Shown: positions 34,945-59,903 of the stretch, piece after piece
How the letters are laid out: each line of letters opens with the position of its first letter
How positions within the stretch are numbered: the first letter of the stretch is position 1
Origin: Aquipuribacter nitratireducens
GTDB taxonomy: Bacteria > Actinomycetota > Actinomycetes > Actinomycetales > JBBAYJ01
DNA length: 64,000 nt
Reading direction: 5' to 3'
Assembly: GCF_037860835.1 (NCBI RefSeq)
Contig: NZ_JBBEOG010000005.1
Location: forward strand, 62,001-126,000
Notes under the pieces: generated by a model
Databases searched by the model: none
The model's input: only the letters and a program-made list of their open reading frames with translations
Told to the model about the DNA's origin: nothing
Made by a program: the position numbers and the translations under genes

Positions 34945-34998
34945 GGGCGGCTGAAGGCCAGTAAACGTGCACGTCGGGGGCGGTACGGCCGACGCTCT

Positions 34999-35058
34999 TG
35001 AAAACCGTTGAACAGGTAACCATTCCTGTTTCGTGGGTTCGAATCCCACGCCCTCCGC
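34999..35058 (+). repeat. att copy 2: 3' half of tRNA-Ser(UGA)
   Basis: Identical to copy 1 over all 60 bp that I compared. There is no tRNA 5' half upstream. The right flank (35059-35120) has the shared 'ggtcaaggctg' segment and a TTGTCCACA box at 35109-35117, as in copies 3-5. Confidence 0.88.
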
Positions 35059-35246
35059 GAATCAGACGATTCATCACCAAAGGGGGAAGGTCAAGGCTGA
35101 CGCCCCCGTTGTCCACAGGGGCGCCTCGGCAGACTGCCGCCCGGGCGGGCCGCTTCCGCGCGGTCTCATGGCCACGTTCACAGCTGCGGAGGTGGTTCTG
35201 CCGTTCGCGGGCCACTGTGGCTGAGCGGGCCGTGCAGACTGGCGCG

Positions 35247-36659
35247 GTGCTGCTGACGCTGTCGACCACGATGCCGCAGGCCAGTGACCTCGGGTTCCTC
35301 CTGCACAAGCATCCCGATCGAGCGCAGTCGTTCGACGTCGCGGTCGGGACGGCTCATGTGCTGTGGCCTGAGGTGTCCGACGAGCGGAGCACTGTGGCGT
35401 TGCTGCTTGAGGTCGATCCGGTCGCGCTGGTGCGTGGTCGCGGCCGGCACGGTGATGGCGTCTCGCTGCAGCAGTATGTGAATGACCGGCCCTATGTGGC
35501 TTCGTCGATGCTGGCGGTTGCGCTGGGGAAGGTCTTCCGCACTGCGATGGCGGGTCGGTGCGACGCCCGTCCGGACCTCGTCGGCACTGAGATCCCGCTC
35601 GAGGTGAGCATTCCTGCGCTTCCCAGCCGAGGGGGCGCCGACCTGGTGCGGCCTCTCTTCGAGCCACTCGGCTGGCAGGTCGAGGTGACCCCGCTGCCGC
35701 TGGACGAGACGGTGTCGGCCTGGGGGGACTCGCCCTACGTGGCGCTCCGGCTGACCGGGACGATGACGCTCGCGGCCGCCCTGACGCAGCTGTACGTCCT
35801 GGTCCCGGTGCTGGACGACGGGAAGCACTACTGGGTCACCGGCGACGAGGTGGACAAGCTCCTCCGTGCTGGCGGCGGGTGGCTAGAGGGTCACCCGGAG
35901 CGCGAGCTCGTGACCCGCAGGTACCTCAAGCACCAGCCCGCCCTGGTTGTCGACGCTGTCACGCGCTTGGCGGAGTTGGACGACGTCCGTCCTGTTGACG
36001 ACTCGGCGTCTGAGACTGCGACCGGGGGCGCAGGGTCCGAGGTACGTATTGCGCCGTTGGCGGTGCAGCGACGGGCCGCGGTGCTGCAGGCGCTGCGCGA
36101 GGAGGGCGCGAAGAGCGTCGTCGACCTCGGCTGCGGGGAAGGCTTCCTGCTGCGCGAGCTCGTGCCTGACCCGACGTTCACCTCGGTCGTCGGTGTGGAC
36201 GTGTCGCACCGGGCGCTGCAAGCCGCAGAACGACGCTTGAACCTGGACCGGATGCCGGACTCCCAGCGGGCGCGGCTGCGGTTGCTGCAGTCGTCGGTGA
36301 CCTACCGCGACGACCGGCTGGTCGGCCACGACGCGGTGGTGCTGATGGAAGTCATCGAGCACGTCGACCCGGACCGCCTGCCCGCCCTGGAACGCAGCGT
36401 CTTCGGTCATGCCCGCCCGACATCGGTCGTGGTCACGACCCCCAACGTGGAGCACAACGTGCGCTTCGAGACCCTCGCCGCCGGCACGCTCCGTCACCCG
36501 GACCACCGCTTCGAGTGGACCCGCGCGGAGTTCCGCGGCTGGGCCGACGCCGTCGCCGACCGCAACGGTTACACCGTCGACTACCGGCCCGTCGGCGACG
36601 ACGACCCCGAGGTGGGACCGCCCACCCAGATGGCCATCTTCCGGAGGGTCACGGCATGA
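35247..36659 (+). CDS. hen1: 3'-terminal RNA ribose 2'-O-methyltransferase Hen1
   Basis: 470 residues, the normal length for bacterial Hen1. The N-terminal Hen1-L domain opens 'LLTLSTTMPQASDLGFLLHKHPDR', read as a region (residues 2-25). The C-terminal methyltransferase has the SAM motif 'VVDLGCGEGFLL' and the Mg-binding signature E368-V-I-E371-H372 ('EVIEHVDPDRL'). It methylates the 2'-OH of the 3' end at a break before ligation, so the repaired RNA resists a second cut by a ribotoxin. The start is GTG 35247, where family homology begins; the open frame upstream runs through the tRNA repeat. The stop overlaps the pnkp start (ATGA), the standard bacterial repair operon. Confidence 0.95.
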   Translation: MLLTLSTTMPQASDLGFLLHKHPDRAQSFDVAVGTAHVLWPEVSDERSTVALLLEVDPVALVRGRGRHGDGVSLQQYVNDRPYVASSMLAVALGKVFRTAMAGRCDARPDLVGTEIPLEVSIPALPSRGGADLVRPLFEPLGWQVEVTPLPLDETVSAWGDSPYVALRLTGTMTLAAALTQLYVLVPVLDDGKHYWVTGDEVDKLLRAGGGWLEGHPERELVTRRYLKHQPALVVDAVTRLAELDDVRPVDDSASETATGGAGSEVRIAPLAVQRRAAVLQALREEGAKSVVDLGCGEGFLLRELVPDPTFTSVVGVDVSHRALQAAERRLNLDRMPDSQRARLRLLQSSVTYRDDRLVGHDAVVLMEVIEHVDPDRLPALERSVFGHARPTSVVVTTPNVEHNVRFETLAAGTLRHPDHRFEWTRAEFRGWADAVADRNGYTVDYRPVGDDDPEVGPPTQMAIFRRVTA

Positions 36660-39253
36660 GCGCACTCACCGTCCCCGAGCTGTCGCTGGTGTGCATGGTG
36701 GGGGCCAGCGGCTCCGGCAAGTCCACGTTCGCCGCAGCCCACTTCGGGCCCTTCGAGGTGCTGTCCAGCGACTTCTGCCGTGGCCTGGTCTCCGATGACC
36801 CGAACGACCAGTCCGCGACGAAGGCCGCGTTCGAGGTGCTTCACCACATCGCGGGCAAGCGCCTGGACGCCGGTCGGCTGACCGTGGTCGATGCGACCAA
36901 CGTCCAGCCCGAGGCCCGACGCAGCCTGGTCGCCCTGGCCCGCGAGCACGACGTGCTGCCGGTCGCCATCGTGCTGGACCTGCCCGAGCGGGTGTGCTTG
37001 GACCGCAACGCCGCCCGGGCCGACCGCGCGTTCGGTGACCGCGTCGTCAAGCGTCAGCGCGACCAGTTGCGCCGTTCGCTGCGGTCCCTGCGCAGGGAGG
37101 GTTTCCGCTCGGTGCACGTCCTGCGCAGCGAGGAGGAGGTTGCCGAGGCGGTGGTCGTACGGGAGAAGCTCCTCAACGACTTCCGTGACCGGCCGGGTCC
37201 GTTCGACGTGATCGGAGACGTCCATGGCTGCCGGGGCGAGCTGGAGCAGCTCCTGGGCGACCTCGGCTACACACTGGTGCGCGACGAGGATGGCCGCTGC
37301 GTGGACGCGGTGCCCCCAGCCGGTCGGACGGCGGTCTTCCTCGGAGACCTCGTGGACCGCGGCCCGGACTCGCCGGGCGTGCTGCGTCTCGTGATGGGCA
37401 TGGTCGCCGCCGGCCACGCCTTGGCGGTGCCGGGCAACCACGAGTCCAAGTTGGTCCGTGCCCTGCAGGGACGCGACGTGCAGGTCAGCCACGGCTTGGA
37501 GGCGACACTCGCTCAGCTCGCGGCGGAGACGCCGGAGTTCCGGACCGAGGTCGAACGGTTCTGCCACGGTCTCGTGTCGCACCTCGTCCTGGACTCCGGG
37601 CGCCTCGTGGTCGCCCACGCCGGGCTGGTCGAGAAGTACCACGGACGGGCCTCGGCCCGCGTGCGTAGCTTCGCCCTGTACGGCGACACCACCGGTGAGA
37701 CCGACGAGTTCGGCCTCCCGGTCCGCTACCCGTGGGCGCAGGAGTACCGCGGTGCCGCGACCGTCCTGTACGGGCACACACCCACCCCGGAACCGGAGTG
37801 GATCAACAACACCATGTGCCTGGACACCGGCGCCGTCTTCGGTGGCCACCTGACCGCGCTGCGCTACCCCGAGAGGGAAATCGTCCAGGTTCCGGCGCAG
37901 CGGGTTTGGTATGAGCCCGTCAAGCCGTTCCCGCCCGCCGGCAGCGCCGAGCCGGCCCCCTCCGCCGCCTCGACTCCCAGCAGGGGACACGACGACCTCG
38001 CCATCACCGACGTCCTCGGAGCACGCGGAATCGAGACCCGACTCGCGGGCCGTGTCACGGTCAGGGAGGACAACGCCGCTGGCGCGCTGGAGGTGATGAG
38101 CCGGTTCGCGATGGAACCGCGGTGGCTGCTCTACCTGCCACCCACCATGGCCCCGACCGCCACGATGCCCGACGGAGACGTGCTCGAGCACCCTGCCACC
38201 GCCTTCGACTTCTACGCCAAGGGCGGTGTCACCGAGCTGTTGTGCGAGGAGAAGCACATGGGCTCACGTGCCGTCGCGCTCGTCTGCCGCGACGTCGACA
38301 CCGCACGGTCGCGGTTCGGCGGCACCGACGGTGCCACCGGCGCCGTCTACACCCGCACCGGACGACCGTTCTTCGACCGCGACCTCACCGAGCAGCTCCT
38401 CGCGCGGCTGCGTGACGCCGTGACCAGAGCAGGCTTGTGGGACGAGCTCGACACCGGCTGGGTGCTGCTCGACGCCGAGCTGCTGCCCTGGTCAGCGAAG
38501 GCCGAGGCGCTGCTTCGCGACCAGTACGCCGCCGTCGGCGCCGCCGCACGCGCCGCAGTCCCCGCCGCCGTCGACGTCCTGGAGCGGGTCGCCGCGCGCG
38601 GAGTGAACGGCGACGCGGGATCCGAGAACGGCGTGTCCGAGCTGCTGGCACGCACCCGTTCCCGTGCCGCCAACGCCCAGGCCTACACCGACGCCTACCG
38701 ACGCTACGTGTGGCCGACCGACGGGATCACGGGGATCCAGCTCGCCCCGTTCCAGCTGCTCGCATCCGAAGGACGCACCTGGGCCGACCACCACCACCTC
38801 TGGCACCTCGGCATCGCCGACCGCCTCGCGGACGCCGACCCGGACCTCGTCCGCACCACCCGCAGGCTCCCGATCGACACCAGCGACGCCACATCCCTGG
38901 CCCAGGGCGTGACCTGGTGGGCGGACCTGACCGCCGCCGGCGGCGAGGGCATGGTGGTCAAGCCGCTCGCGAACCTCGTCAGAGCCACGCGCGGCTGGGC
39001 CCAGCCCGGCATCAAAGTCCGCGGGCGTGAGTACCTGCGCATCATCTACGGACCCGACTACACCGAGCCGTACAACCTCGAACGCCTCCGCGACCGGCAG
39101 GTCGGGCACAAGCGGTCCATGGCCGCCCGCGAGTACGCCCTCGGCATCGAGGCTGTCGAGCGCGCCGTGGCACGCGAGCCGCTGTGGCGGGTCCACGAGG
39201 CGGTGTTCGCTGTGCTCGCCCTGGAGTCCGAGCCAGTCGACCCGAGGCTGTGA
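36656..39253 (+). CDS. pnkp: Polynucleotide kinase-phosphatase-ligase Pnkp
   Basis: 865 residues with the three domains of bacterial Pnkp. The N-terminal 5' kinase has the P-loop G16-A-S-G-S-G-K22-S23. The central metallophosphoesterase (2',3'-phosphatase) has 'DVIGDVHGC' (near 185), 'GDLVDRGPDS' and 'GNHE'. The C-terminal adenylyltransferase has the KxxG lysine K533 in 'EEKHMGSRA'. With Hen1 it heals and seals tRNAs or other RNAs cut by anticodon nucleases. It follows hen1 with a 4-bp overlap. Here the pair lies in a cassette between tRNA-Ser repeats, next to phage-defence cassettes, which suggests a role against ribotoxins. Confidence 0.95.
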   Translation: MSALTVPELSLVCMVGASGSGKSTFAAAHFGPFEVLSSDFCRGLVSDDPNDQSATKAAFEVLHHIAGKRLDAGRLTVVDATNVQPEARRSLVALAREHDVLPVAIVLDLPERVCLDRNAARADRAFGDRVVKRQRDQLRRSLRSLRREGFRSVHVLRSEEEVAEAVVVREKLLNDFRDRPGPFDVIGDVHGCRGELEQLLGDLGYTLVRDEDGRCVDAVPPAGRTAVFLGDLVDRGPDSPGVLRLVMGMVAAGHALAVPGNHESKLVRALQGRDVQVSHGLEATLAQLAAETPEFRTEVERFCHGLVSHLVLDSGRLVVAHAGLVEKYHGRASARVRSFALYGDTTGETDEFGLPVRYPWAQEYRGAATVLYGHTPTPEPEWINNTMCLDTGAVFGGHLTALRYPEREIVQVPAQRVWYEPVKPFPPAGSAEPAPSAASTPSRGHDDLAITDVLGARGIETRLAGRVTVREDNAAGALEVMSRFAMEPRWLLYLPPTMAPTATMPDGDVLEHPATAFDFYAKGGVTELLCEEKHMGSRAVALVCRDVDTARSRFGGTDGATGAVYTRTGRPFFDRDLTEQLLARLRDAVTRAGLWDELDTGWVLLDAELLPWSAKAEALLRDQYAAVGAAARAAVPAAVDVLERVAARGVNGDAGSENGVSELLARTRSRAANAQAYTDAYRRYVWPTDGITGIQLAPFQLLASEGRTWADHHHLWHLGIADRLADADPDLVRTTRRLPIDTSDATSLAQGVTWWADLTAAGGEGMVVKPLANLVRATRGWAQPGIKVRGREYLRIIYGPDYTEPYNLERLRDRQVGHKRSMAAREYALGIEAVERAVAREPLWRVHEAVFAVLALESEPVDPRL

Positions 39254-39356: not shown

Positions 39357-40541
39357 GTGGACCAGACCCTCAACCCCTACACCCCAGGAGCAGGTAAGCC
39401 CCCACCTGCTCTCGTCGGCCGCGAGGCCGAGCTCGACGCCGGTCGAGTCGTGGTCGCCCGCACCGCTCGCGGCACCTCTGCGACGGCCCCCCTGTTCTAC
39501 GGCCTGCGCGGCGTGGGGAAAACGGTGCTGCTGAAGGCTCTCCATGCTCAGGCCGAGACGGCTGGATGGCTGACGGTCGAGATCGAGGGCAAGCAGGAGG
39601 CGAGCGAGCAACAGCACACTCGCCGGCGCCTCGCCCGTGGCCTAGTCACCGCGGCGCGCGCCACTGCTGGACGGCGCGGCACGCTCAGCGACGCATGGAA
39701 GCGCGCTCTCGGGACTATCAGCTCCTTCTCCGTCGCGGCCGGCGCGACCGGCGTCGAGCTGAGCCTCGGCGTGGACCCCATGCGTGGCCGCGGCGACACA
39801 GGCGACCCGGAGACCGACCTCGAAGAGCTGGTGCGCGACATGGTGCCTGCCCTCAAGGAGTCCGGCATCGGGCTGGGTGTCTTCGTCGACGAGATCCAGG
39901 ATCTGGACCCGGCCACCCTGAGCGCTCTCATCTCCGTACAACACCGAGCCGGTCAGAACGGCTGGCCCTTCCACCTGTACGGCGCAGGCCTGCCCAACGT
40001 CCCCGCCCGACTGGCCGAGGTGCGCTCCTACTCCGAGCGCTTCCACTTCGTCCAGATCGGCGCCCTCTCCGACACCGATGCGAGGGCGGCCTTCGCCGAC
40101 CCCGCATTGCAGGTAGGCGTCGAGTACGAAGCCGCAGCCCTCGACCGCCTGGTGCAGGTCTCGGGTGGCTACCCCTACTTCGTCCAGGTCTTCGGTGACC
40201 AGGCCTGGCGGTTGGCCCCCGGACCCCAGGTCATTACACGTGAGGATGCCGACGTGGCGGTGGCCGAGGCGACGGCCGTCCTGGACGACAGCCTCTTCCA
40301 CTCCCGCTGGAACCGGGCCACGCCGGCGCAGAAGGCCCTGATGCGCGCCATGGCAGAAGACAGCGGCCACAGTCAGATCTCCGACCTCGTTGCGCGCATG
40401 GGAAAGAGAAAGCCGAGCGACCTCAGCGTCACCCGGGACGGGCTCATCAAGAAGGGCCTTATCTACGCCCCCGACAGAGGACTACTGCAATTCACCGTGC
40501 CCCACATGGACGACTACATCCGGCGCCAGCACGAGACCTGA
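39357..40541 (+). CDS. AAA/Orc-type ATPase (STAND-like ATP-binding protein)
   Basis: 394 residues from GTG 39357. 'ALVGREAELDAG' precedes the P-loop 'GLRGVGKTVLL' (about 48-58). Walker B is 'GVFVDEIQDLD' (about 175-185). Then come 'LYGAGLPNVPARLAEVRSYSERFHF' (sensor region), 'VQVSGGYPYFVQVFG', and a C-terminal winged-helix-like part ('SDLSVTRDGLIKKGLIY'). These archaeal-type ATPases are common on mobile elements and as nucleic-acid-associated switches. It is 103 bp after pnkp with its own inverted-repeat promoter region, so it may be an independent gene. Its partner is not obvious. Confidence 0.8.
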   Translation: MDQTLNPYTPGAGKPPPALVGREAELDAGRVVVARTARGTSATAPLFYGLRGVGKTVLLKALHAQAETAGWLTVEIEGKQEASEQQHTRRRLARGLVTAARATAGRRGTLSDAWKRALGTISSFSVAAGATGVELSLGVDPMRGRGDTGDPETDLEELVRDMVPALKESGIGLGVFVDEIQDLDPATLSALISVQHRAGQNGWPFHLYGAGLPNVPARLAEVRSYSERFHFVQIGALSDTDARAAFADPALQVGVEYEAAALDRLVQVSGGYPYFVQVFGDQAWRLAPGPQVITREDADVAVAEATAVLDDSLFHSRWNRATPAQKALMRAMAEDSGHSQISDLVARMGKRKPSDLSVTRDGLIKKGLIYAPDRGLLQFTVPHMDDYIRRQHET

Positions 40542-40719
40542 CCGTTGGTTCTAGACGAACAGGCTGCACCGTCAGCCGGAACTACATGCCCGAGGGCCGG
40601 ACCTCGGTGCCTCCGTTCGGCTGCCGCGCCACCGTGCGGCGCGCGAGGGGTGTACGCGTCCGTGCGCGTGCTGCGGTGTCCGGCGGTCAGCGACGAGCGT
40701 CGACCATCATCAGAATCCT

Positions 40720-40738
40720 GTGCCCGTCCTGTGCCCAC
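40720..40738 (+). promoter_or_regulatory. Arm-type repeat upstream of att copy 3
   Basis: GTGCCCGTCCTGTGCCCAC, 73 bp before the repeat at 40793. Confidence 0.6.
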
Positions 40739-40792
40739 GGGCGGGAGAAGGCTTACAAACCTGCAGGTCAGGGGCCATGTCGCACACGCTCC

Positions 40793-40852
40793 TGAAAACC
40801 GTTGAACAGGTAACCATTCCTGTTTCGTGGGTTCGAATCCCACGCCCTCCGC
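40793..40852 (+). repeat. att copy 3: 3' half of tRNA-Ser(UGA)
   Basis: Same 60 bp as copies 1 and 2. The base before the anticodon loop differs (CTCC instead of CTCT). The right flank has the shared 'agaggggtctggtcaagg' and TTGTCCACA at 40902-40910. Confidence 0.88.
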
Positions 40853-41096
40853 GATAGGAACGATCCGACACAAGAGGGGTCTGGTCAAGGCCGCCGCAGC
40901 GTTGTCCACAGGGCGGCCGCCGCACGTTGCCACGGGGTGTGGACCACAGCGCGCGCCGGTGCAGGCGTGCTTGCCAGCCCTCGTGTCACTGACCCGCAGC
41001 CCTCTACCGGCGGCTGCCTTCTGTCAGTCGCGGCTGCTTGAATCCGGCTGGGCGTGTCGCAGGGACGCGGCTAGCACGGGGGAGGCCATCACTCAC

Positions 41097-44000
41097 ATGG
41101 TCCGCGACCCCAAGCTCCCACTCGGTGACGACCTCTTCTCCGTTGACCCTGCGTCCTACATCGAGTTCGGGTTGTCGACGCTGCAGTGGCCGGATCAGAG
41201 CCGCTTCCCCGTCAACCTGCCCCGGCGACACGTCCGCAGCGTCGTCGATGAAGATCTCCGTTCGTCGGACGCGCCGCTGCTGGTCGCGGGCTACTCCTCT
41301 ATCGCATCGCTGATCGAGGTGGTCGCGTCGTGGCGGCTCGCGCGTAGGAACCGGCCAGGGTCATTCCGGCTGCTGCTCGGGTCTGAGCCGTTCGCCTCTC
41401 AGCGGGCCCACTTCGCCTCTGCACGAGAAGAGTTCACCGACGAGGTACGCGGCTACTGGCTCGAGAAGTCGGTGTCCGTGCGACTGTCGGCGAAGGTTCT
41501 CAGGACGATCGAGGAGCTCGACCAAGGGACCCTGCAGGTTCGCATCATCCCGGGGCCACCGGCTCTGCACGCGAAGATCTATGCTGGCGACAACGCGGCA
41601 ACAGTTGGGTCGAGCAACTACACCGACTTCGGTATGGCCCGCCAGCTTGAGGCCAACGCCCGCTTCGAGGCCGTGACTGAACCGGAGCGGTTCCGGGCGC
41701 TGACGACCATCGCGAACAACCTGTGGTCGAAAGGCATGGCGTGGGACGACGCGTTCCGTCGCCTGCTGCTCGACCTCTTGCAGGTCGTCAGCTGGCAAGA
41801 GGCGCTCGCACGCGCCTGCGCTGAGCTGCTCGACGGCGACTGGGTCCGCGACCTGTTGCCGAACGCCGAGCTCGCGCAGCTGTGGCCATCGCAGACGGCC
41901 GGCATCGCCCAGGCGCTCTGGGTCGTCGAGAACCTCGGCAGCGTCCTCGTTGCCGATGCCACCGGCTCCGGCAAGACCCGGATGGGCGCGCACCTGGTGG
42001 CAGCTGTACGGCATCGCCTTCTCGACACCGGCCGTATGCGGCGCGACCGGGACCTCACCACCTTGGTATGCCCTCCAGCGGTGCTGGAGACGTGGCAGCG
42101 CGAGGCGCTCATCAGTGGGGTCACGATCATGCCGGTGTCACACGGCCTTCTCAGCCGGCCCGACCCCGCCGGTCCACGGCAGGAAGTGGCCGCGGTCGCG
42201 CGCGCGCAGGTGCTGGCCGTCGATGAGGCGCACAACTTCCTGGCGGCTGAGTCGAACCGCACCCGCCGCCTTCGCGAGACGCTCGCAGACCATGTGCTGC
42301 TGTTCACCGCAACGCCCATCAGCCGCGGAGCCCAGGACCTGCTCTCCCTGGTCGGGCTGCTCGGCGCCGACAACTTCGACGACGTGACCCTCGAAGTACT
42401 AGAACGACTCGAGCGCGGAGTCGGCGCGGAGGCCACCCTCACCGAACCGCAGCGCGATCGACTCCGCCGTGAGATCCAGCGATTCACGGTTCGACGCACG
42501 AAGTCGATGCTCAACGAACTCGTCGCCCACGACGAAGAGGCCTATCGGCATCCCGAGACCGACCGTGTCTGCCGCTACCCCGGCCACGAGCCGAACGTCT
42601 ACGGCACCGGCGAGACGCGCGCGGACGAAGAGGCAGCAGAGTCGATCCGAACTGCCGCCAGCGAATTAACGGGTGTCATCCAGCTCGGCCGTCGACTGCG
42701 GGTGCCGCCGGCTTTACGCGACGACGTCTCCGACGAGGCGTGGCTGGCAGGGCGACTCAAGGCGGCGAAGGGACTCGCGCGCCATCACGTCCTCGCAGCG
42801 ATGCGCTCCTCACGCCCGGCCCTCGTCGAGCACATCGCCGGCACAGCCGCCGCGATCCAGGCATACGACCTGTCGTCGGCGTCCAAGGGCCAGGCAACCG
42901 GCAACGTCGCCGCGACTGTTGAAGGCCTAGCCGTCCTGGGTCCTCCACACCTTGAGTTGACGTGCGAGATTCCGGACTGGCTGGCAGACCCTTCGGCGTG
43001 GCAGGAGGCATGCACACGGGAATCGGACACCTACGCCCGGATCCTGGCGGCCGCCCGCAGACTCAGCGCGTCTCGCGAGCGAGCCAAGGCCGACCTGCTC
43101 GCACAGCTCTCCGGCCGTCACCGACTTGTCTTGGCCTTCGACCGCCGACCGATCACGCTGGCCGCGATCCGCGACCAGTTGGACGGCACGAGCGCGGACG
43201 TGCTGGTAGCGACAGGCGAGGCGACGACGGCGCGCAAGCAGGTGCATCGCTTGTTCGCGCGTGACTCGACCGCTCACGCGATCGCCCTCTGTTCTGATGC
43301 GCTGAACGAGGGGTTGAACCTGCAAGGCGCGGCTGCCTTAGTGCACCTGGACCTGCCGACCACCCTCCGAGTTGCCGAGCAGCGGGTAGGGCGGGTCGAC
43401 CGCATGGACAGCCCGCATGACCGCATCGAAGTGTGGTGGCCGGACGATGGCCACGCGTTCGCGACCCGCGAGATCGAGCTGCTGCTGACACGCCGGCATG
43501 CCAGCGAGGAACTGCTCGGGTCGAACCTGCCCATGCCCGCGTTCTCGCACCGCGATGACGACGTCGTGGTCTCAGTGGCGCAGCACATCCGTGACTTCGA
43601 CCGCCCGGACGTGCCGTGGGACGGCATTCACGACGCGCTGGACCCTGTCCGCCGGCTCGTGAGCGGAGACGACGCCCTCGTCCCTACAGAGGTCTATGCC
43701 GAGCACCGGAACACGCGGCAGCGTGTCATGGCGCGAGTGGCGCCAGTTGCCTCGACGACACCATGGGCCTTCCTCGCTCTCTCTGGTACGCAGCAAGGCG
43801 CACCACGATGGCTGCTCCTTGACGGAGATCCGGCGACCGCGACCATCGGTGTGGAGGCGGTCGCAGACCGGCTTCGCGTCCGGCTGGCGGAGCACCCCGC
43901 GAACGTGCTCTTCGACGAGGAGTGCGAGCGCTGGCTCGATAGATTCCTCGCCAGCGCCGCCGAACACGAGGCACTGCTGCTGCCTCGCCGCATGCAGCGA

Positions 44001-44360
44001 GCGCTCGATCAGATGGCCGAGATGACGTCTCTGTGGGCGGATCAGGAACTGCGCAGCGGCAGCCCCGATCAGGCTGCACAGTGGCGCCGGATGCATCGTG
44101 TGGCTAGCCCCGAGTCAGACGACGAGCGGCTCGATCCGTACCTGGTGGGCGAGGTCTGGTGGGACCTGGTCCGACCACTGTTCAGCGACCTCCCGCGCAC
44201 TCGCCGCCGACGGCGCTACACGCGGCTTCGAGACCTTGACTCCCTGCTGCGAATCAGACCCCTCGACCTGTCAGCCTTGCAGAACGCGATGCGCCGCGTC
44301 CCTAGGGTGGAGCCTGTCGACAAGCGGGTAAGCGCCGTCATCCTCGGCGTTCCGCAGTAG
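41097..44360 (+). CDS. Phospholipase-D-like/SNF2-type helicase fusion
   Basis: 1087 residues from ATG 41097 (GGGGGAGG upstream). Residues ~30-230 form a PLD-like domain with one HKD-type motif, H158-A-K160 then 'GSSNYTDFG'. Residues ~275-480 are helicase lobe 1: P-loop TGSGK293T, DEAH at 376-379, 'LLFTATPISRG'. Lobe 2 (about 650-800) ends in motif VI 'AEQRVGRVDRMD' (Q762, R763). About 290 helical residues follow. SNF2 or DEAD translocases joined to PLD nucleases occur in restriction and DISARM-like defence. Here it is followed directly by a PD-(D/E)xK protein, and the two fill a cassette between att copies 3 and 4. It probably scans and cuts foreign DNA; the single HKD suggests dimerisation. 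Confidence 0.82.
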   Translation: MVRDPKLPLGDDLFSVDPASYIEFGLSTLQWPDQSRFPVNLPRRHVRSVVDEDLRSSDAPLLVAGYSSIASLIEVVASWRLARRNRPGSFRLLLGSEPFASQRAHFASAREEFTDEVRGYWLEKSVSVRLSAKVLRTIEELDQGTLQVRIIPGPPALHAKIYAGDNAATVGSSNYTDFGMARQLEANARFEAVTEPERFRALTTIANNLWSKGMAWDDAFRRLLLDLLQVVSWQEALARACAELLDGDWVRDLLPNAELAQLWPSQTAGIAQALWVVENLGSVLVADATGSGKTRMGAHLVAAVRHRLLDTGRMRRDRDLTTLVCPPAVLETWQREALISGVTIMPVSHGLLSRPDPAGPRQEVAAVARAQVLAVDEAHNFLAAESNRTRRLRETLADHVLLFTATPISRGAQDLLSLVGLLGADNFDDVTLEVLERLERGVGAEATLTEPQRDRLRREIQRFTVRRTKSMLNELVAHDEEAYRHPETDRVCRYPGHEPNVYGTGETRADEEAAESIRTAASELTGVIQLGRRLRVPPALRDDVSDEAWLAGRLKAAKGLARHHVLAAMRSSRPALVEHIAGTAAAIQAYDLSSASKGQATGNVAATVEGLAVLGPPHLELTCEIPDWLADPSAWQEACTRESDTYARILAAARRLSASRERAKADLLAQLSGRHRLVLAFDRRPITLAAIRDQLDGTSADVLVATGEATTARKQVHRLFARDSTAHAIALCSDALNEGLNLQGAAALVHLDLPTTLRVAEQRVGRVDRMDSPHDRIEVWWPDDGHAFATREIELLLTRRHASEELLGSNLPMPAFSHRDDDVVVSVAQHIRDFDRPDVPWDGIHDALDPVRRLVSGDDALVPTEVYAEHRNTRQRVMARVAPVASTTPWAFLALSGTQQGAPRWLLLDGDPATATIGVEAVADRLRVRLAEHPANVLFDEECERWLDRFLASAAEHEALLLPRRMQRALDQMAEMTSLWADQELRSGSPDQAAQWRRMHRVASPESDDERLDPYLVGEVWWDLVRPLFSDLPRTRRRRRYTRLRDLDSLLRIRPLDLSALQNAMRRVPRVEPVDKRVSAVILGVPQ

Positions 44361-44471
44361 TTGCCGAGTCCTCCGACGACTGGTTCGAGAAGTCAGGGGG
44401 CATGGACGCATCCAGCCTTCAGTGAGCCTGATCAGCGGCGTGACACCGACTTCGGCGGCCGAGCAGCCTGC

Positions 44472-45665
44472 ATGCTGCTCATGCGCCGCCTCCGCGGCAG
44501 CCTGTTGCTGCAGACTGGCCCGGTGGCGAGACGCATCTTGGTGACGGGCGGGAGCGGGCCCGTTCAGTTCGTCGAGCGCCCCGCGGACAACGAGCACGAG
44601 CTGCAGACGGTCCTCCTGACCAACCCGGCGCTGATGCCGGCAGAGGACCTAGGCCTTGACGACGAGCTACTCGTCGTCGGCCGCGAGACGACTCTGGCCT
44701 CGGGCAGCGTTGACTTGCTCTGCCTCTCGCGCAGCGGCGAGCTGGTCGTCATCGAGTTCAAGACCGGTCCCCAGAACCCGGACTTCCGTCACGCCCTCGC
44801 CCAAGTGATCGATTACGGCTCCGACCTGTGGAAGCTCGGCAGCTGGACCGAGTTCGACGAAGGCGTCGTCCACCGGTACCTCACGAGCCGACACGTCGAC
44901 CCAGGGGTCAAGACGGCCCAAGATCTGAGAGCAGCAGCTGTGGGCACGTGGGGGCTCGACGACACCGGCTGGCAGACGCTCGCCACGCGTCTGGACCAGG
45001 TCCTCATAACAGGGGACTTCCACTTCGTCGTCGCAGCACAACGTTTCACGGAGCAGATGAAGGACTCCGTTCGCTACCTCAACGAGACCACGCGCTACGG
45101 CAAGTACTTCCTAGTCGAGGTCATACGGCTCGACGGGCTCGAGCAGAGGGCCTACGCCGCCCAGGTAGTAGAGCGCCCCCCTGCCCGTACGTCCGCAAGC
45201 GGCACGGCATCGAAGGCGACGCAGACCGACTTCCTCGCCGCCATCGCAGACCCTACCTACCGCGAGGCCGTGAGCGAGCTGTTCGCCACCGTTTCAGCGC
45301 TAGGGCTGATCCTCGCCTGGTACTCCAAGGGAGCCTCGATCCGCTTGAGGTCCCCTGACCGCACGGAGCCAATCTCGATCGGATGGGTCTTTCTAGAAGG
45401 CGGGCAGTGGTACGGAGCCAGACACATCACCCTCGGCGTCGACCCCGGCACCCTCAAAAGCCACCCGAGCCTCGCACCGGCAGTCACCGAGTTCTGCCAG
45501 CGCGTCAGTCGCGTGCAGGGTGGCAAGCCAGCAGCAGGCGTCTTGTCCGCGACGGTCTTCGAGCCCGACGCATTCACTCCTGCGCAGCCTCAGCTTCTTG
45601 CATTGCTAAGCGACCTGCAGAAGGCGGCTGCCGCAATCCCGGTCAGTGGCACGGGCTCGCCGTAG
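44472..45665 (+). CDS. PD-(D/E)xK nuclease-domain protein
   Basis: 397 residues if ATG 44472 is the start; the open frame goes back to TTG 44361 right after the helicase stop, and recognisable sequence begins near residue 20. The nuclease core is D81 ('GSVDLLCLS') and E95-F-K97 ('VVIEFKTGPQNPDFRHALAQVIDYG'), the D-x(n)-E-x-K of NucS/DUF91-like endonucleases. The C-terminal ~130 residues ('EAVSELFATVSALGLILAWY') resemble a DNA- or nucleotide-binding add-on seen in other such proteins; I cannot name it. With the adjacent PLD-helicase it makes a two-gene system. Confidence 0.75.
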   Translation: MLLMRRLRGSLLLQTGPVARRILVTGGSGPVQFVERPADNEHELQTVLLTNPALMPAEDLGLDDELLVVGRETTLASGSVDLLCLSRSGELVVIEFKTGPQNPDFRHALAQVIDYGSDLWKLGSWTEFDEGVVHRYLTSRHVDPGVKTAQDLRAAAVGTWGLDDTGWQTLATRLDQVLITGDFHFVVAAQRFTEQMKDSVRYLNETTRYGKYFLVEVIRLDGLEQRAYAAQVVERPPARTSASGTASKATQTDFLAAIADPTYREAVSELFATVSALGLILAWYSKGASIRLRSPDRTEPISIGWVFLEGGQWYGARHITLGVDPGTLKSHPSLAPAVTEFCQRVSRVQGGKPAAGVLSATVFEPDAFTPAQPQLLALLSDLQKAAAAIPVSGTGSP

Positions 45666-45817
45666 CGGCGGTGCCACGGTGCCACGGTGCCATGACGCGC
45701 CCTTGAATTGTTGGGGTCGGGCTTCAGGACCCCGACCAAGGGTCAGTCGGCCCACAAGGAGCGCCGCACCTCTTGTCCGGTGCCCACCGGTTAGCAGCGG
45801 TTGTCATCGGCGGGGCA

Positions 45818-45836
45818 GTGCCCCGCTCGTGCCCCC
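45818..45836 (+). promoter_or_regulatory. Arm-type repeat upstream of att copy 4
   Basis: GTGCCCCGCTCGTGCCCCC, 73 bp before the repeat at 45891; the least conserved of the six. Confidence 0.55.
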
Positions 45837-45890
45837 GGTACGCGGCCAGCCCGTGTCGTTCCAGGTCAGAGGCGGTACAACAGACGCTCT

Positions 45891-45950
45891 TGAAAGCCGT
45901 TGAACAGGTAACCATTCCTGTTCCGTGGGTTCGAATCCCACGCCCTCCGC
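45891..45950 (+). repeat. att copy 4: 3' half of tRNA-Ser(UGA)
   Basis: 60 bp with two changes from copies 1-3 (AAAGCC for AAAACC, and CCGTGG for TCGTGG), both shared with copy 5. The right flank holds TTGTCCACA at 46001-46009. The ComB-like gene ends 82 bp further on. Confidence 0.87.
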
Positions 45951-46091
45951 AAAGGGAACGATTCACCACGAGAGGGGTCTGGTCAAGGCTGCCGCCACCG
46001 TTGTCCACAGGGTGCCCGGGGGTCCGGCAGGGCGGCACTCACGGCGGTTGAGGAGGTCGGAGGAACAGGACGTTCCCGTCGAGAGTCGTCT

Positions 46092-46859
46092 TCAGGCTGG
46101 CACGAAGGCGTGTCCTCGGAGGACGGGCACCGAGGCGCTGCGATCGAGCTCGGCGGCGATGTCGACATCGGCACCGAAGCCGCTCTCGTGGAGCTCTCGT
46201 CCACTGGCACATGCAGCGAGCTGGGCAGCGAGGTCGGGAGCCGTCGCACGCCTGGCCGCAGCCGCCAGGCCTGCCTCTGGAGACAGGTCCTGCCAGCCGC
46301 GATCGGCCAGAGCCAGCAGCATGGCGCCTGCTCCCCACAGGTCCTCCACGGCGGGACGCAGCGACCCGTCGGGCCAGCGTTCACCGGCGGAGACGACCGC
46401 CACCGTCGCGCTGCGGCGGTCATAACGCTCCTCGACCCACTCGGCCACGGCGGTGGCGTTGCGCAGGCAGGCACCCACGACCACGCCGGCAACGCCGGCC
46501 AGGCGGTGGGCGATGGTCGAACCGTTCGGGGAGGGCAGCACCAGCCGCGCCGGCGGCGGGTCGGCGGTGCGGACAGTCGCGGGGGACAGGCTGATCTGTC
46601 CGGGCTGCGCGACGCGGCGACCGACAGCGAGAACTGCGTCGTGCTCGGCTGCGAAGCGTCCGGCGTCCTGGTCGTCCCACGGGTAGGGCAGCACGTGGAT
46701 ACCGGCGTCGGTGGCCACGCTGAGCGTGGTGGTGAAGGACAGGACGTCGACCACCACTGCGATGTCGACGTCTACGGCGATGGCGCCGGCGCCGGTTATG
46801 CCCCAGTCGTGGCGGACCCGATGGCCGTCCTGGCGATGGGATGGCTGGTAGGTCGGCAC
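46092..46859 (-). CDS. 2-phosphosulfolactate phosphatase-like (ComB family), copy 1
   Basis: 255 residues of the ComB fold: 'VVVDVLSFTTTLSVATDAG', 'LVLPSPNGSTIAHRL', 'VGACLRNATAVAEW', 'VAVVSAGERWPDGSLRPAVEDLWGAG'. ComB removes phosphate from 2-phosphosulfolactate in coenzyme M synthesis, but in actinobacteria the family occurs without that pathway and its role is open. A second copy at 59109-59888 is highly similar. The start is set at GTG 46859 because it matches that copy (VPTYQPAHRQDG versus VPTFKPAHRQDG); GTG 46865 is possible. Confidence 0.8.
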   Translation of the reverse strand: MPTYQPSHRQDGHRVRHDWGITGAGAIAVDVDIAVVVDVLSFTTTLSVATDAGIHVLPYPWDDQDAGRFAAEHDAVLAVGRRVAQPGQISLSPATVRTADPPPARLVLPSPNGSTIAHRLAGVAGVVVGACLRNATAVAEWVEERYDRRSATVAVVSAGERWPDGSLRPAVEDLWGAGAMLLALADRGWQDLSPEAGLAAAARRATAPDLAAQLAACASGRELHESGFGADVDIAAELDRSASVPVLRGHAFVPA

Positions 46860-46998
46860 GTCCACGACGGCGAGGGTAGGTCGGCCGTCTCGGCAGCCGG
46901 TGCTTCGCGGGACGTCCGTCCGACGACTACTCATTGGTGGCCGGCCGCGACGGCTGACAGAGCCTGCGACGGGGGACTGCAGCGCGTGCCGCCTCCCG

Positions 46999-47796
46999 TC
47001 ATTGGAGGAGCCGAGCGCTCGTCTCGTCGACGAACCTGCGGATGGTCGCTGCTTCTGACGGCTGGTCCTCGTTCCCGCCGTCGTACCACCAGTCCCGCGC
47101 CCACAGCACCACGTCCCGGTGCGCGGGCACTGCGTCAGCGACGATGGTTGCCGCGGCCTTCTTGGACACCTGCTCGCCGGTCTCCAGCGCGACTGCGGCG
47201 CGGCACATGCTGAGGACCGCGTACGCCTGCCCGCCGGGGGTGGTCGTGTCGCGCACCCATGTCGGCCAGTCCCTGACATGGTGCAGCAGCGCGTCCCGCA
47301 CCAGCTCGTCGTCGATCGCGGGGATGAGCGTCTGCACCGGCGGTCCGGTCAGCGTGACGCCGTGCCGGCGCGCCAACGACCAGCCCAGCACTCGGTGCGG
47401 GGTCGCGGCGAGCAGGTGCAGGTGCTCGCCCGGGCTCACGCGCGCGATGACGCCAGGCTCCGCCAGGGCGTCGCCGGTCGTCAGCCGTCGCACCGTGTCG
47501 AGGGCCACATACTCGACTTCCACGCGACCACGCCACATCGGGAATCGTGCGTCTACCTGGTCGTGGACGACCCTCAGGCGGACGAGCAGCTCCTCGTCGG
47601 GTTGCTGGGTCAGTACCGCGAGGAGGTCGACGTCGCTGCGTCCCAGGCAGAAGTCACCGGCCGCCAGACGGCGGTGCAGGTACACGCCCGCCAGCGCAGG
47701 ACCGAGGCCTTCGTCCAGCAGCTCGACGGTCGTTTCGAGCAGCGTCTGGACCTCGCCGGGTATCGAGCGCAAGGGGCTGCTTTCCACGTCAGTCAC
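46999..47796 (-). CDS. Aminoglycoside adenylyltransferase-like protein, copy 1, altered catalytic motif
   Basis: 265 residues of the ANT(3'')/ANT(9)-like family: nucleotidyltransferase N-domain and a DUF4111-like helical C-domain ('WPTWVRDTTTPGGQAYAVLSMCR', 'VLWARDWW'). The active site should read G-S-x(n)-D-x-D. This copy has 'YLHRRLAAGDF' then 'RSDVDLLAV', so the Gly-Ser that holds the triphosphate is Arg-Arg. The copy at 61268-62065 has intact 'YLHGSLAVGDF'. The acidic pair is kept. Enzyme activity of copy 1 is therefore doubtful. The start is GTG 47796, matched by the other copy. A NUDIX gene is divergent 100 bp away. Confidence 0.8.
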   Translation of the reverse strand: MTDVESSPLRSIPGEVQTLLETTVELLDEGLGPALAGVYLHRRLAAGDFCLGRSDVDLLAVLTQQPDEELLVRLRVVHDQVDARFPMWRGRVEVEYVALDTVRRLTTGDALAEPGVIARVSPGEHLHLLAATPHRVLGWSLARRHGVTLTGPPVQTLIPAIDDELVRDALLHHVRDWPTWVRDTTTPGGQAYAVLSMCRAAVALETGEQVSKKAAATIVADAVPAHRDVVLWARDWWYDGGNEDQPSEAATIRRFVDETSARLLQ

Positions 47797-47896
47797 CCCG
47801 GCAGCGTCTCGAGGAGCCAGTGACCTTGCCAGTGGATTGAGCTGCGTCCCGCGGCGGGGCCGGCACGAGCATGCTCCCGCCTGACAGGGTGAGACG

Positions 47897-48769
47897 GTGT
47901 CCGAGGCGGGTGTTCGAGGCGGTGTCCGCTGTGGCAGTGACGAGCACATCGTGGTCGCCGCTGTCCTGTGCCGCGCCGGGCGGGCGCTGCTGGTGCACCG
48001 CTCGCCGTCGCGGGGCTGGTACCCCGACGTGTGGGACCTTCCCGGCGGGCACGTCGAGCCTGGGGAGGATCCGCAGCGCGCGCTGGAGCGGGAGCTCACC
48101 GAAGAGCTCGGCATCACGGCCTCCGTCGCCGGTGAACCCTTCGCCCGGCTGCGCGGCGACGACTTCGTGATGGATGTGTGGGTGCTGGACCAGTGGCGCG
48201 GGGAAGCGGCCAACCAGGACGTCGAGGAGCACGACGCGCTGGCATGGCTCACCGCTGATGAGATGACAGCGCTCCGCCTCGCCGATGCGCGCCTGCCTGA
48301 GCTGGTGCGGGCAGCCCTGCAACAATCGTCGCCCTCACCGCAGGCGCGCCCCTCGCATCGCCCCCGCGGTGCGTCTTGCGGTCGGCTGCACCACATCGAG
48401 TTGTGGGTCCCGGACATCGACCGGGCCACCCGCAGCTGGGGATGGCTGCTCAGCGAGCTCGGCTATGAGCCGTTTCAGCAGTGGGCGGGTGGCCGGAGCT
48501 GGCGGCTGCCTCCGACGTACATCGTCCTGGAGCAGTCACCCGCCCTGCTGCCGGGCGGGCACGAACGCACCAGGGCGGGCCTGAACCACCTCGCCTTCCA
48601 CGCCGGCACCCGCGAGCACGTGGACGCCCTCGTCGTCGCCGCCCCGGCTCACGGCTGGACGTTGCTGTTCCCCGAGCGCCACCCCTACGCCGGAGGACCC
48701 CAGCACTACGCCGCCTACCTCAGCGACACCGACGGCTACGAGATCGAGCTGGTGGCCGACGACAGCTGA
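47897..48769 (+). CDS. NUDIX hydrolase fused to a VOC (glyoxalase-like) domain
   Basis: 290 residues from GTG 47897. Residues ~15-130 are NUDIX, with the box GHVEPGEDPQRALERELTEE and LG following. Residues ~160-288 are a vicinal-oxygen-chelate domain: 'GRLHHIELWVPDIDRATRSWGWLL' region, 'AGLNHLAFHAG', 'YEIELVADD', with the usual H/E metal positions. The NUDIX half is almost the same as the single-domain copy at 62170-62637, which lacks the VOC part. VOC proteins include fosfomycin- and bleomycin-resistance enzymes. A detoxifying or nucleotide-sanitising enzyme beside ANT fits a resistance-like block. Confidence 0.82.
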   Translation: MSEAGVRGGVRCGSDEHIVVAAVLCRAGRALLVHRSPSRGWYPDVWDLPGGHVEPGEDPQRALERELTEELGITASVAGEPFARLRGDDFVMDVWVLDQWRGEAANQDVEEHDALAWLTADEMTALRLADARLPELVRAALQQSSPSPQARPSHRPRGASCGRLHHIELWVPDIDRATRSWGWLLSELGYEPFQQWAGGRSWRLPPTYIVLEQSPALLPGGHERTRAGLNHLAFHAGTREHVDALVVAAPAHGWTLLFPERHPYAGGPQHYAAYLSDTDGYEIELVADDS

Positions 48770-52650: not shown

Positions 52651-52710
52651 TGAAAGCCGTTGAACAGGTAACCATTCCTGTTCCGTGGGTTCGAATCCCA
52701 CGCCCTCCGC
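52651..52710 (+). repeat. att copy 5: 3' half of tRNA-Ser(UGA)
   Basis: 60 bp identical to copy 4. The right flank resembles that of copy 2 at first ('cagtcagacgat') and has CTGTCCACA at 52761-52769 in place of TTGTCCACA. Confidence 0.87.
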
Positions 52711-52878
52711 CAGTCAGACGATCCACCAGGAAAGGTGCGCGGTCAAGGCGTCAGCAACGGCTGTCCACAGGCTCCGACGCCGACGGCTACCCGTGGCTCG
52801 ACTAGCACCGGCGCACTCGCTACCAAGAGAAGGTGAAGGAGCGGCCCTGCAGGTCTCTCGCAGGGGACACTCGTCGGT

Positions 52879-53358
52879 GTGAGCCACACGTCACCGACCG
52901 CGTCCGCCCCGTCGGGCGGCCCTGCTCAGGTGGTGGGTGGTCGGCTGGGTCCCGTCGAGGCGGTGCGGACGGTGCTGCGAAAGACGTTCATGTGGTCCGG
53001 TCGGGCGAGGCGCTCGGAGTTCTGGTGGTGGACGCTCTTCGCCTCCGCCGTCTACCTCACCGCCATCGCCGTCGAGCTCCGGCTTGACCCCACTGGCGAC
53101 AGCGTCGTCATCACGGGCGTCGCCTGGGCGGCCCTCCTGCTGCCGACGCTGGCCGTCACCGTCCGACGCCTCCACGACAGGTCGTTCTCCGCGTGGTGGC
53201 TGCTGCTCAACCTGCTCCCCTTCGGGGTGCTCGTCGTGCTGGTGTTGTGCGCCTTCGACAGCTGGGCCGGACCCAACCAGTACGGGCCCGACCCCAAGGG
53301 CCGCCCCAGCCCGGCCAGACCCGCAACCGCAGCCGGCGGACCCGCGGGTCCGCGGTGA
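52879..53358 (+). CDS. DUF805 membrane protein
   Basis: 159 residues from GTG 52879. DUF805 hallmarks are 'GRARRSEFWWWTLF', 'VTVRRLHDRSFSAWWLLL' and 'GPNQYGPDPKG'. Three or four hydrophobic segments lie between residues ~45 and 130. The family is widespread and of unknown function. It is the first gene after att copy 5. Confidence 0.85.
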   Translation: MSHTSPTASAPSGGPAQVVGGRLGPVEAVRTVLRKTFMWSGRARRSEFWWWTLFASAVYLTAIAVELRLDPTGDSVVITGVAWAALLLPTLAVTVRRLHDRSFSAWWLLLNLLPFGVLVVLVLCAFDSWAGPNQYGPDPKGRPSPARPATAAGGPAGPR

Positions 53359-53461
53359 CGCACTTCTCCCGGTGCCTCTCGCCCCAGAGCACGTCGCCCC
53401 AGAGCGCGTCACCCCGAAGCATGTCGTCCCACGGCGCCGCCCGCTGGCGGGACCGCTGCTC

Positions 53462-53989
53462 GTGAGCCGCCGGCGACGCAGGTACCGCGTGAACAGCGCC
53501 GTGCAGGGCCGGCTCGACCCGTCCGACACGACTGACACGGCTGGCGTGGCTGGCGCGGAGGGGGCAAGGCTCGTTTTCGCCGCCGTGCTGACCGCCCTGC
53601 GCGGCGACGCCGAACGCGTCGTGGCCGACCTCTTCGCCCGCGACGCGCCACTCCCATCGCACGCCAGAGCCGCCGCCCTCGAGCTGCACCAGTGCACACG
53701 GCCTGTCCTGCTCGCCACCTACGACCGCAACCCGTTCCAGTCGGTCACCATCGACCCCGGCGACCACGCGCAGTGGCGAGCGCTCCTGAAGGTGGCGCCG
53801 TACTCCAAAGACCTACGCCTCGAGACCACCTTCACCGACCTGCTCGCCTCATTTGGAGGCGTCGACTCCCTGCGCCTTCGGTTGCGCGACGAACAGGCCG
53901 ACCGCGTGCGCCAGGCGCTGCGGGACCTACCCGCCGGTCTCTCCGCTTCCCTCGTGCTGCGCCGCCCCTTATGGCGGAGGCGCCCGTAG
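53462..53989 (+). CDS. Hypothetical protein
   Basis: 175 residues from GTG 53462. I do not recognise it. The N-terminus is Arg-rich; the middle ('GARLVFAAVLTALRGDAERVVADLF') is helical; the C-terminus ('YSKDLRLETTFTDLLASFGGVDSLRLRLRD') looks like an α/β domain. Codon use is like that of the neighbours, which supports a real gene. Confidence 0.5.
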   Translation: MSRRRRRYRVNSAVQGRLDPSDTTDTAGVAGAEGARLVFAAVLTALRGDAERVVADLFARDAPLPSHARAAALELHQCTRPVLLATYDRNPFQSVTIDPGDHAQWRALLKVAPYSKDLRLETTFTDLLASFGGVDSLRLRLRDEQADRVRQALRDLPAGLSASLVLRRPLWRRRP

Positions 53990-54486
53990 CGGCCTGCTCC
54001 CGCTGACGGTTCCAGTCGGGGGAGCAGGGCCCGACTGTGGCTCGGTCGATCCGGTGGTGTGCGACGGAAGCCGGGTGCGTCGGGTCGACCGCACGGCACC
54101 ATCAGCACATGACGGACGAGCCGCGTGGACCGGAGGACCCTGGTTCCGCCGCGGCCGGTCGGCCCGTGCCCGGTGCGGTCGCCCCCGTGTCGCTGCCGGG
54201 GCCGTTGCCTGTGACGTGGCGGTTGTCGAGACGTCGAGAGTCGGCTCCGCATGCTCGTCATCGGCGGCGGGCTCACCGACCCCCGACTGCCGTGACCCAC
54301 CTCAGGTCGGAAGAGCCGAAAATCCTTGACAAGCACGGCATCAAGCGAAGATCGCCTGGAGCTACTGCAATCTCGACAGAGGCATGACCCCGCGCCTCCT
54401 TCGCGGCGATTGGCGATATTCAGCATGATACGATGGATGAATGGCAAGAGTTCTCGTTCCAATACATTGAAGGAGCCGCTTAAGTT
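53990..54486. other. Mixed intergenic region before the STAND gene
   Basis: A frame from ATG 54110 ('MTDEPRGPEDPGSAAAG') looks like the N-terminus of a lost gene but decays after about 40 codons. An ISL3-like end lies at 54296-54317. From there to 54486 the composition drops sharply in GC, and AAGGAG stands 11 bp before ATG 54487. Confidence 0.5.
54296..54317. repeat. ISL3-like terminal repeat, left copy
   Basis: A 22-bp sequence ending GTCGGAAGAGCC; its complement starts GGCTCTTCCGACCTGAGG, like the ISL3 ends at 3864 and 5321. A 21/22 direct copy lies at 58993-59014. The two bracket the STAND gene in the same orientation. Confidence 0.65.
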
Positions 54487-58938: not shown

Positions 58939-58992
58939 CGTCTCTGTCCACTCCACTTCTGGCATGACGGCCTGTTGGATATGGCAGCCCGC

Positions 58993-59888: not shown

Positions 59889-59903
59889 GTCCAGACGTCG
59901 AGA

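What the first reader, a model, noticed from the sequence alone, without database searches (positions are those of the whole stretch)
41097..45665. Two-gene PLD-SNF2 helicase plus PD-(D/E)xK cassette
The genes fill one att-bounded cassette and nothing else lies in it. One protein joins a PLD (single HKD) to an SNF2 motor; the partner has a NucS-like nuclease core and an unrecognised C-terminal domain. No modification methylase is present, so self/non-self discrimination must use another cue. This does not match DISARM, BREX or a Type I/III set as I know them.
Basis: partly seen in the sequence, partly recalled or inferred. Interest (0 to 1): 0.75.

Follow-up and report, generated by a model that had tools for sequence, protein, structure and literature searches.

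The report
Two separate defence genes, one cassette
A small tRNA-bounded gene cassette in a bacterial chromosome carries two putative DNA-cutting proteins that look like virus defences, but relatives elsewhere carry one or the other, so they are probably two independent defence genes and not a new two-part system.

Summary
Two intact co-directional genes fill the interval between two tRNA-Ser-derived repeats. Gene 1 (41097-44360) encodes a single-HKD PLD domain fused to an SNF2 motor with its main motifs intact. Gene 2 (ORF 44361-45665, real start probably 44523) encodes a NucS-like PD-(D/E)xK nuclease. The repeats are two of eight identical 27-nt tRNA-Ser(UGA) 3' ends in one 127-kb tandem array.

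The reading as one two-gene system is not supported. In samples of 396, 394 and 200 genomes searched with each gene, only this genome has both. None of seven full-length gene 1 relatives has gene 2 in the fetched flank; the two close gene 2 relatives sit beside type I RM or McrBC-like genes.

Best explanation: gene 1 is a lone HKD-SNF2 restriction-like enzyme, working like SauUSI; gene 2 is an independent accessory nuclease of defence islands. The HKD-Snf2 fusion is already published as the effector of DUF499-centred 'Type-2 BR' systems. Different here: no DUF499 hit in the genome, no methylase in the cassette, no fixed partner. A new variant of a known kind. No activity is shown.

The parts
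40764..40897 (+). left bounding repeat; tRNA-Ser(UGA) 3' fragment, identical core 40826-40852
   Evidence: 134-nt direct repeat, 86%; exact core; alignment of 8 copies
41097..44360 (+). gene 1: HKD/PLD nuclease domain (H158, K160) fused to SNF2 motor (about residues 264-780) plus uncharacterised C-terminal region (about 785-1087), 1087 aa
   Evidence: SD-like GGGGGAGG upstream of the ATG
44361..45665 (+). gene 2: NucS-like PD-(D/E)xK nuclease with unassigned C-terminal domain; ORF 434 aa from TTG, likely start GTG 44523 (380 aa)
   Evidence: PADLOC PDC-S11 E 3.3e-12
45862..45995 (+). right bounding repeat; tRNA-Ser(UGA) 3' fragment, identical core 45924-45950
35032..35058 (+). preceding att-like core of the array, left end of the Hen1/Pnkp cassette
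52684..52710 (+). next att-like core of the array; further cores at 8024-8050 and 62840-62866

Best explanation
The cassette is a variable unit, without a tyrosine recombinase of its own, in a tandem array of tRNA-Ser(UGA)-derived att sites, and carries two independently acquired defence genes. Gene 1 is a lone restriction-like enzyme: its C-terminal part or SNF2 motor recognises a feature of invading DNA, ATP hydrolysis drives movement along duplex DNA, and PLD half-sites pair (as in SauUSI) to form the active site that cuts where motors stall or collide. Gene 2 is a separate NucS-like PD-(D/E)xK nuclease of the kind that rides along in RM and McrBC islands. Shown: intact genes, conserved catalytic and motor residues, array structure, separate distribution, defence or mobile neighbours. 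Inferred: DNA as substrate, dimeric cutting, translocation, defence. Guessed: the self/non-self cue; a modification-dependent (type IV-like) mode is my preferred guess because the genome has no C5 DNA methylase hit.
For: Invariant HKD (H, K) and SNF2 motifs in relatives 41-54% identical, from Actinobacteria and one record titled Proteobacteria. PLD match to a PDB restriction endonuclease and SNF2 match to RapA. 0 of 7 distinct full-length gene 1 relatives have a gene 2 relative in the fetched flank. Close gene 2 relatives lie beside a type I RM locus (L020) and McrBC-like genes (L021). Neighbours of gene 1 relatives: PF00589 recombinases in L026, L028, L035; Eco57I methylase and McrB-like AAA in L027 and L079; McrC in L079; DUF3427 PLD-helicase and a Phd-like gene (below cut-off) in L034; HNH_2 and SIR2_2 in L036. 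Array: 8 cores, leftmost copy the only one that Rfam's gathering score accepts as tRNA (1 of 8), one PF00589 in that contig. Cassette genes absent from both congeners, which have their own copies of the repeat. No PF00145 hit in the genome, while the control rang in 10 of 14 genomes.
Against: The two genes are adjacent, co-directional and alone between the repeats, with no promoter-like or terminator-like site called in 40700-46000 (a weak scan at this GC content), which is what an operon would look like. Gene 1 relatives are rare, so co-occurrence rests on few genomes, and flanks are short on one side in L028, L036 and L079. In L079 and L027 the gene 1 relative lies near a methylase and a McrB-like gene, so it may use partners. 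No background count of defence genes near random genes was made. No usable structure was obtained (mean pLDDT 49.2 and 33.2). ARAGORN also calls three further repeat copies of the array tRNA-Ser, so 'only one intact tRNA' rests on the alignment and on Rfam.
Confidence: 0.6

Rival explanations
1. A true two-component system: the HKD-SNF2 protein detects and moves on foreign DNA and the PD-(D/E)xK protein is a second, required cutter. The pair is simply young or rare.
For: Sole occupants of one bounded interval, same strand, no terminator or promoter called between them.
Against: Only the window's own genome has both families, in samples of 396, 394 and 200 genomes searched with each; 0 of 7 gene 1 loci have gene 2 in the fetched flank.
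Confidence: 0.15
2. Gene 1 is a detached effector of a DUF499-centred Type-2 BR system or a DISARM/Dpd-type set whose other subunits lie elsewhere in the genome and act in trans.
For: HKD N-terminal to Snf2 is the published Type-2 BR helicase layout (PMC12839542). Best curated NCBIfam match is DpdE, 90.4 bits, over the SNF2 part (residues 284-771).
Against: No DUF499 hit in the genome. Scores far below family cut-offs: DpdE 90.4 of 500, DrmD 61.3 of 610, PLD anti-phage protein 37.8 of 1100. No neighbour recurs in all loci.
Confidence: 0.15
3. Not defence: a RapA-like SNF2 protein with a PLD repair nuclease, and a NucS-like repair nuclease, serving DNA repair or element maintenance.
For: Sequence matches to RapA and NucS_C are to housekeeping proteins.
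Against: Patchy distribution (4 of 396), presence near RM, McrBC, SIR2, HNH and recombinase genes, match to a restriction endonuclease of the PLD type.
Confidence: 0.1

Closest known systems
Type-2 BR (DUF499-centred BREX-related) HKD-Snf2 helicase (PMC12839542; sections 28 and 30 and passages seen)
   Same: HKD endoDNase at the N-terminus of a Swi2/Snf2 motor, proposed there as the restriction effector
   Different: Here no DUF499 hit in the genome, no methylase or DUF3780 ORF in the cassette; 37.8 bits against the 1100 cut-off of NCBI's PLD anti-phage model, whose identity with the BR helicase is my assumption
SauUSI, type IV PLD-helicase (PMC7913695; abstract and outline seen)
   Same: One polypeptide with nuclease domain and helicase-like translocase
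   Different: No DUF3427 (PF11907) match in gene 1 (that SauUSI's recognition part is of this type is recalled); SNF2-type motor and an unassigned C-terminus. A DUF3427 PLD-helicase stands in L034 near a gene 1 relative
DpdE / DrmD SNF2 proteins with DpdK / DrmC PLD partners
   Same: Same two activities
   Different: Separate proteins (separate models; their place in larger gene sets is recalled); scores below cut-offs
PADLOC C3a139 'HKD+Snf2' candidate
   Same: Same architecture by name; matches 4 of 7 gene 1 family members at E<=0.001 and strongly the distant relative in L081 (E 5.2e-43)
   Different: Window protein itself only E 0.0014, best stretch residues 729-775
PADLOC PDC-S11 candidate (gene 2)
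   Same: NucS-like nuclease region, E 3.3e-12; 3 of 3 family members match
   Different: Best match covers residues 65-161 only; the C-terminal domain is not covered by it
CIME/IME accretion arrays at tRNA genes (concept recalled; papers seen only as a search listing)
   Same: att-bounded units without their own tyrosine recombinase in tandem behind a tRNA
   Different: Eight copies over 127 kb; excision and mobilisation not shown

Membership tests
   Only the own genome has both in samples of 396, 394 and 200 genomes; 0 of 7 neighbourhoods
Type-2 BR system | HKD-Snf2 fusion protein | tested here: met
   (PLDc_2 itself is below its cut-off)
Type-2 BR system | DUF499 ATPase | tested here: not met
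   No PF04465 match in the own genome (the control rang in 1 of 14 genomes)
Type-2 BR system | DUF3780 gene in the locus | tested here: not met
   No other ORF of note in the cassette; no DUF3780 model was run and the rest of the genome was not searched for it
Type-2 BR system | N6-methyltransferase in the locus | tested here: not met
   Neither cassette gene is one. Genome: one PF02384 match on another contig, 21.3 bits, just over the cut-off of 20.4
DISARM | DrmA, DrmB and methylase with DrmC/DrmD in one locus (recalled definition) | tested here: not met
   Cassette holds only two genes; DrmD model 61.3 bits of 610
Dpd | Member of the DpdE family within a dpd gene cluster (recalled definition) | tested here: not met
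   DpdE 90.4 bits of cut-off 500; no cluster in the cassette
SauUSI type IV enzyme | PLD + helicase + DUF3427-type recognition domain (recalled) | tested here: not met
   No PF11907 in gene 1 up to E 1; the model does ring for the L034 neighbour
SauUSI type IV enzyme | Cleavage of modified DNA only | not testable with these tools
   needs biochemistry
PDC-S11 (gene 2) | Full-length match to the candidate's model | tested here: inconclusive
   E 3.3e-12 over residues 65-161; PADLOC cut-offs not given
CIME-like unit of an accretion array | att-bounded, no integrase inside, tandem behind an intact tRNA | tested here: met
   (serine recombinases not searched; ARAGORN of the 8 copies tRNA-Ser)
CIME-like unit of an accretion array | Excision or mobilisation in trans | not testable with these tools
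   needs PCR across an empty site

The most novel reading that the evidence does not exclude
Gene 1 represents a self-sufficient class of HKD-SNF2 restriction enzyme, spread on integrative elements and defence islands in Actinobacteria and beyond, that cuts invading DNA with no methylase, no DUF499 ATPase and no fixed partner, using a self/non-self cue read by its own uncharacterised C-terminal domain.
Probability: 0.4. Interest if true: 0.55.

Novelty: new variant of a known kind. Interest (0 to 1): 0.4.

Why it matters
If gene 1 works alone, it would be a one-protein SNF2-driven counterpart of SauUSI, and would show that the HKD-Snf2 effector layout of larger BREX-related systems can function without their ATPase and methylase. 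That makes the question of how such a motor tells self from non-self testable in one protein. The tandem tRNA-Ser array is a ready example of how defence and RNA-repair genes may be swapped as small att-bounded units.

Tried and rejected
Tried without result. Gene 1 and gene 2 as single queries in viral contigs gave no relative. The family alignments gave 5 loci for gene 1, weak (23-39% identity; L040 spans residues 62-773 at 23%, E 3e-7; not followed) and none for gene 2. Plasmid tblastn gave no gene 1 match at 1e-30, and for gene 2 gave 12 Rhodococcus records at 24-26% identity, not followed. The phages and E. coli collections were not searched. Structure prediction was poor for both proteins (mean pLDDT 49.2 with 4 sequences; 33.2 from one sequence); the Foldseek result for gene 1 lists RapA, SNF2-type and other helicases at low TM-scores and is not used as evidence. 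No match of gene 2 to solved structures. Rfam: no family at gathering threshold in the window; of the eight repeat copies only the leftmost passes, as RF01852 at 47.8 bits against 47, while ARAGORN calls four of eight tRNA-Ser.

Considered and rejected: DISARM, Dpd, BREX/BR and SauUSI membership (see membership table). Rows dropped: weak gene 2 matches (E 1e-4 to 1e-13) are in the tallies but are not treated as orthologues. G895 and G768 are partial and G831 a distant relative of gene 1; they are among the 7 of 200 but not among the 7 full-length loci. L035 and L078 (G856) are taken as one locus because both contigs are 120716 long. The gene 1 searches used stricter E-value limits (1e-10, 1e-20) than the gene 2 searches (1e-3, 1e-5).

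Full report
What is there. The interval 40853-45923 lies between two copies of a tRNA-Ser(UGA)-derived repeat (134 nt, 86% identical) whose 27-nt core is exact at six places in the window, against none in 100 shuffles, and at eight places in the genome, all on the + strand of one contig. Aligning the eight copies shows a tRNA-like 5' half only in the leftmost, C5:16280-16373. Rfam's gathering score accepts only that copy (1 of 8, as RF01852, 47.8 bits against 47). ARAGORN is laxer and calls four of the eight tRNA-Ser (in the window 34967, 52620 and 62778). In my reading the others keep the part from the anticodon stem to the 3' end, which is what an integrase acting at a tRNA leaves behind (established knowledge). 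The genome has three PF00589 tyrosine recombinases, and only one, at C5:25487-26080, lies in the array, in its first interval; serine recombinases were not searched. The two congeners searched have four exact cores each, in G035 on one contig, in G018 three on one contig and one on another. Both share the integrase-bearing stretch with this genome and one (G035) shares the Hen1/Pnkp segment, but neither contains gene 1 or gene 2. The cassette is thus variable cargo.

Gene 1 (41097-44360, 1087 aa). Pfam gives SNF2-rel_dom and Helicase_C over cut-off and PLDc_2 below cut-off. In an alignment of seven sequences (relatives 41-54% identical to the window protein) H158, K160 and N174 of the HKD site, K293 of Walker A, DEAH 376-379 and QRxxR 762-766 are invariant; D165 is not. 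A profile of the seven matches RapA, eukaryotic SNF2 remodellers and the restriction endonuclease 2c1l (BfiI, name recalled), E 0.0042. The C-terminal 300 residues match nothing in Pfam at E<=1; one genome (G895) has a 193-codon open frame for this region, probably a remnant.

Gene 2 (ORF 44361-45665). The nuclease core matches NucS_C weakly and the PADLOC candidate PDC-S11 at E 3.3e-12. D118, E132 and K134 are invariant in the two close relatives (50% and 48%), which start where GTG 44523 lies. The C-terminal domain remains unassigned.

Do they belong together? Samples of the same size and draw were searched with each gene. Order, 396 genomes: gene 1 in 4 at E<=1e-10 (own, G032, G262, G382); gene 2 in 7 at E<=0.001, of which 3 strong (own, G082, G317). 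Class, 394 genomes: gene 1 in 1 at E<=1e-20 (own); gene 2 in 13 at E<=1e-5, of which 2 strong (own, G082). Family of G262, 200 genomes: gene 1 in 7, four full-length; gene 2 in 1, weak (G759). No genome other than the window's has both. The samples overlap (for example G082, G262), so they are not three independent tests, and the numbers are small. Around seven distinct full-length gene 1 relatives (L026, L027, L028, L034, L035, L036, L079; flanks cut to 1-2 kb on one side in L028, L036 and L079), tblastn finds no gene 2 relative at E<=1e-3.

Neighbourhoods. Each of the seven gene 1 loci has at least one defence or mobile-element gene in the fetched flank: L026 Y-integrase and a NERD-type helicase; L027 Eco57I/N6 methylase and a McrB-like AAA_5; L028 a PF00589 recombinase; L034 a DUF3427 PLD-helicase and a Phd-like antitoxin, the latter below cut-off; L035 Y-integrase, 80% identical to that of L026; L036 HNH_2 and SIR2_2; L079 Eco57I methylase and McrB-like AAA_5, McrC and a 650-aa unknown upstream on the same strand. 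I made no background count for random genes, so this is context and not a statistic. Of the two close gene 2 relatives, L020 is beside an HsdR gene and a gene that reads as HsdS, and L021 is beside an AAA_5 McrB-like gene and a gene that reads as McrC (sequences; the HsdS and McrC labels are my reading).

What it most likely does. The anatomy of gene 1, one HKD half-site plus one DNA motor in one chain, resembles SauUSI, whose abstract reports a dimer held by its nuclease domains, target-triggered ATP hydrolysis and translocation, and shredding of DNA between sites (PMC7913695). I infer the same logic here, with a SNF2 motor. The same HKD-Snf2 layout is reported for the helicase of DUF499-centred Type-2 BR systems, together with DUF499, an N6-methylase and DUF3780 (PMC12839542, sections 28 and 30), and an earlier paper noted SNF2 helicases fused to PD(D/E)XK or PLDc nucleases beside DUF499 and COG1743 genes (PMC7641849, passages). 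The genome has no DUF499 hit, no PF00145 cytosine methylase hit and one PF02384 hit just over cut-off on another contig; other methylase families were not searched. A modification-dependent mode would need no own methylase, which fits but does not prove it. L079 and L027, with methylase and McrB-like genes nearby, keep open a mode that depends on host modification.

Novelty. The searches 'phospholipase D, SNF2, anti-phage defense, helicase', 'PLD, SNF2 helicase, defense island', 'HKD, Snf2, phage defense', 'DUF3780, DUF499' and 'SauUSI, phospholipase D, Snf2' (15 of 54 papers listed) led to the BR and EVE papers cited above; passages of a YprA-helicase preprint (PMC12458937) describe PLD nucleases beside other helicases. 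I saw no description of a lone HKD-Snf2 enzyme in what I read, but the library lacks most subscription journals and holds no bioRxiv preprints beyond those in PMC, and PADLOC already holds an 'HKD+Snf2' candidate, C3a139. I therefore rate it a new variant of a known kind.

Noticed in passing
window 8024-62866 and contig C5:16280-143432: Eight tRNA-Ser(UGA) 3'-end copies in one orientation divide 127 kb into seven intervals of about 5 to 54 kb; only the first holds a PF00589 recombinase. Pairs of GTGCCC-like words recur beside the copies and could be integrase arm sites (my reading).
   Followed up: partly
window 34998-39253: The preceding cassette encodes Hen1 (Hen1_L 366.5 bits) and Pnkp (PNKP_ligase 588.7 bits), an RNA-repair pair; a congener carries 4 kb of it at 85% identity. 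An AAA ATPase ORF follows at 39357-40541.
   Followed up: partly
window 46048-48230 and 59065-62491: Two different cassettes share four blocks of 204-300 nt at 83-92% identity; each has a 2-phosphosulpholactate phosphatase-like gene and a gene with an AadA_C-type domain, so cassettes seem to have duplicated or exchanged.
   Followed up: no
window 54487-58938: A 1483-aa ORF with no Pfam match at E 0.001 in the cassette 52710-62840.
   Followed up: no
L079:34-11935: Five closely packed same-strand genes: Eco57I-type methylase, McrB-like AAA_5, McrC, a 650-aa protein without Pfam match, and the gene 1 relative. Could be an operon linking HKD-SNF2 to McrBC.
   Followed up: partly
L081:2657-11207: A distant PLD-SNF2 protein (1147 aa, C3a139 E 5.2e-43) behind a type IIG restriction-methylase.
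   Followed up: no
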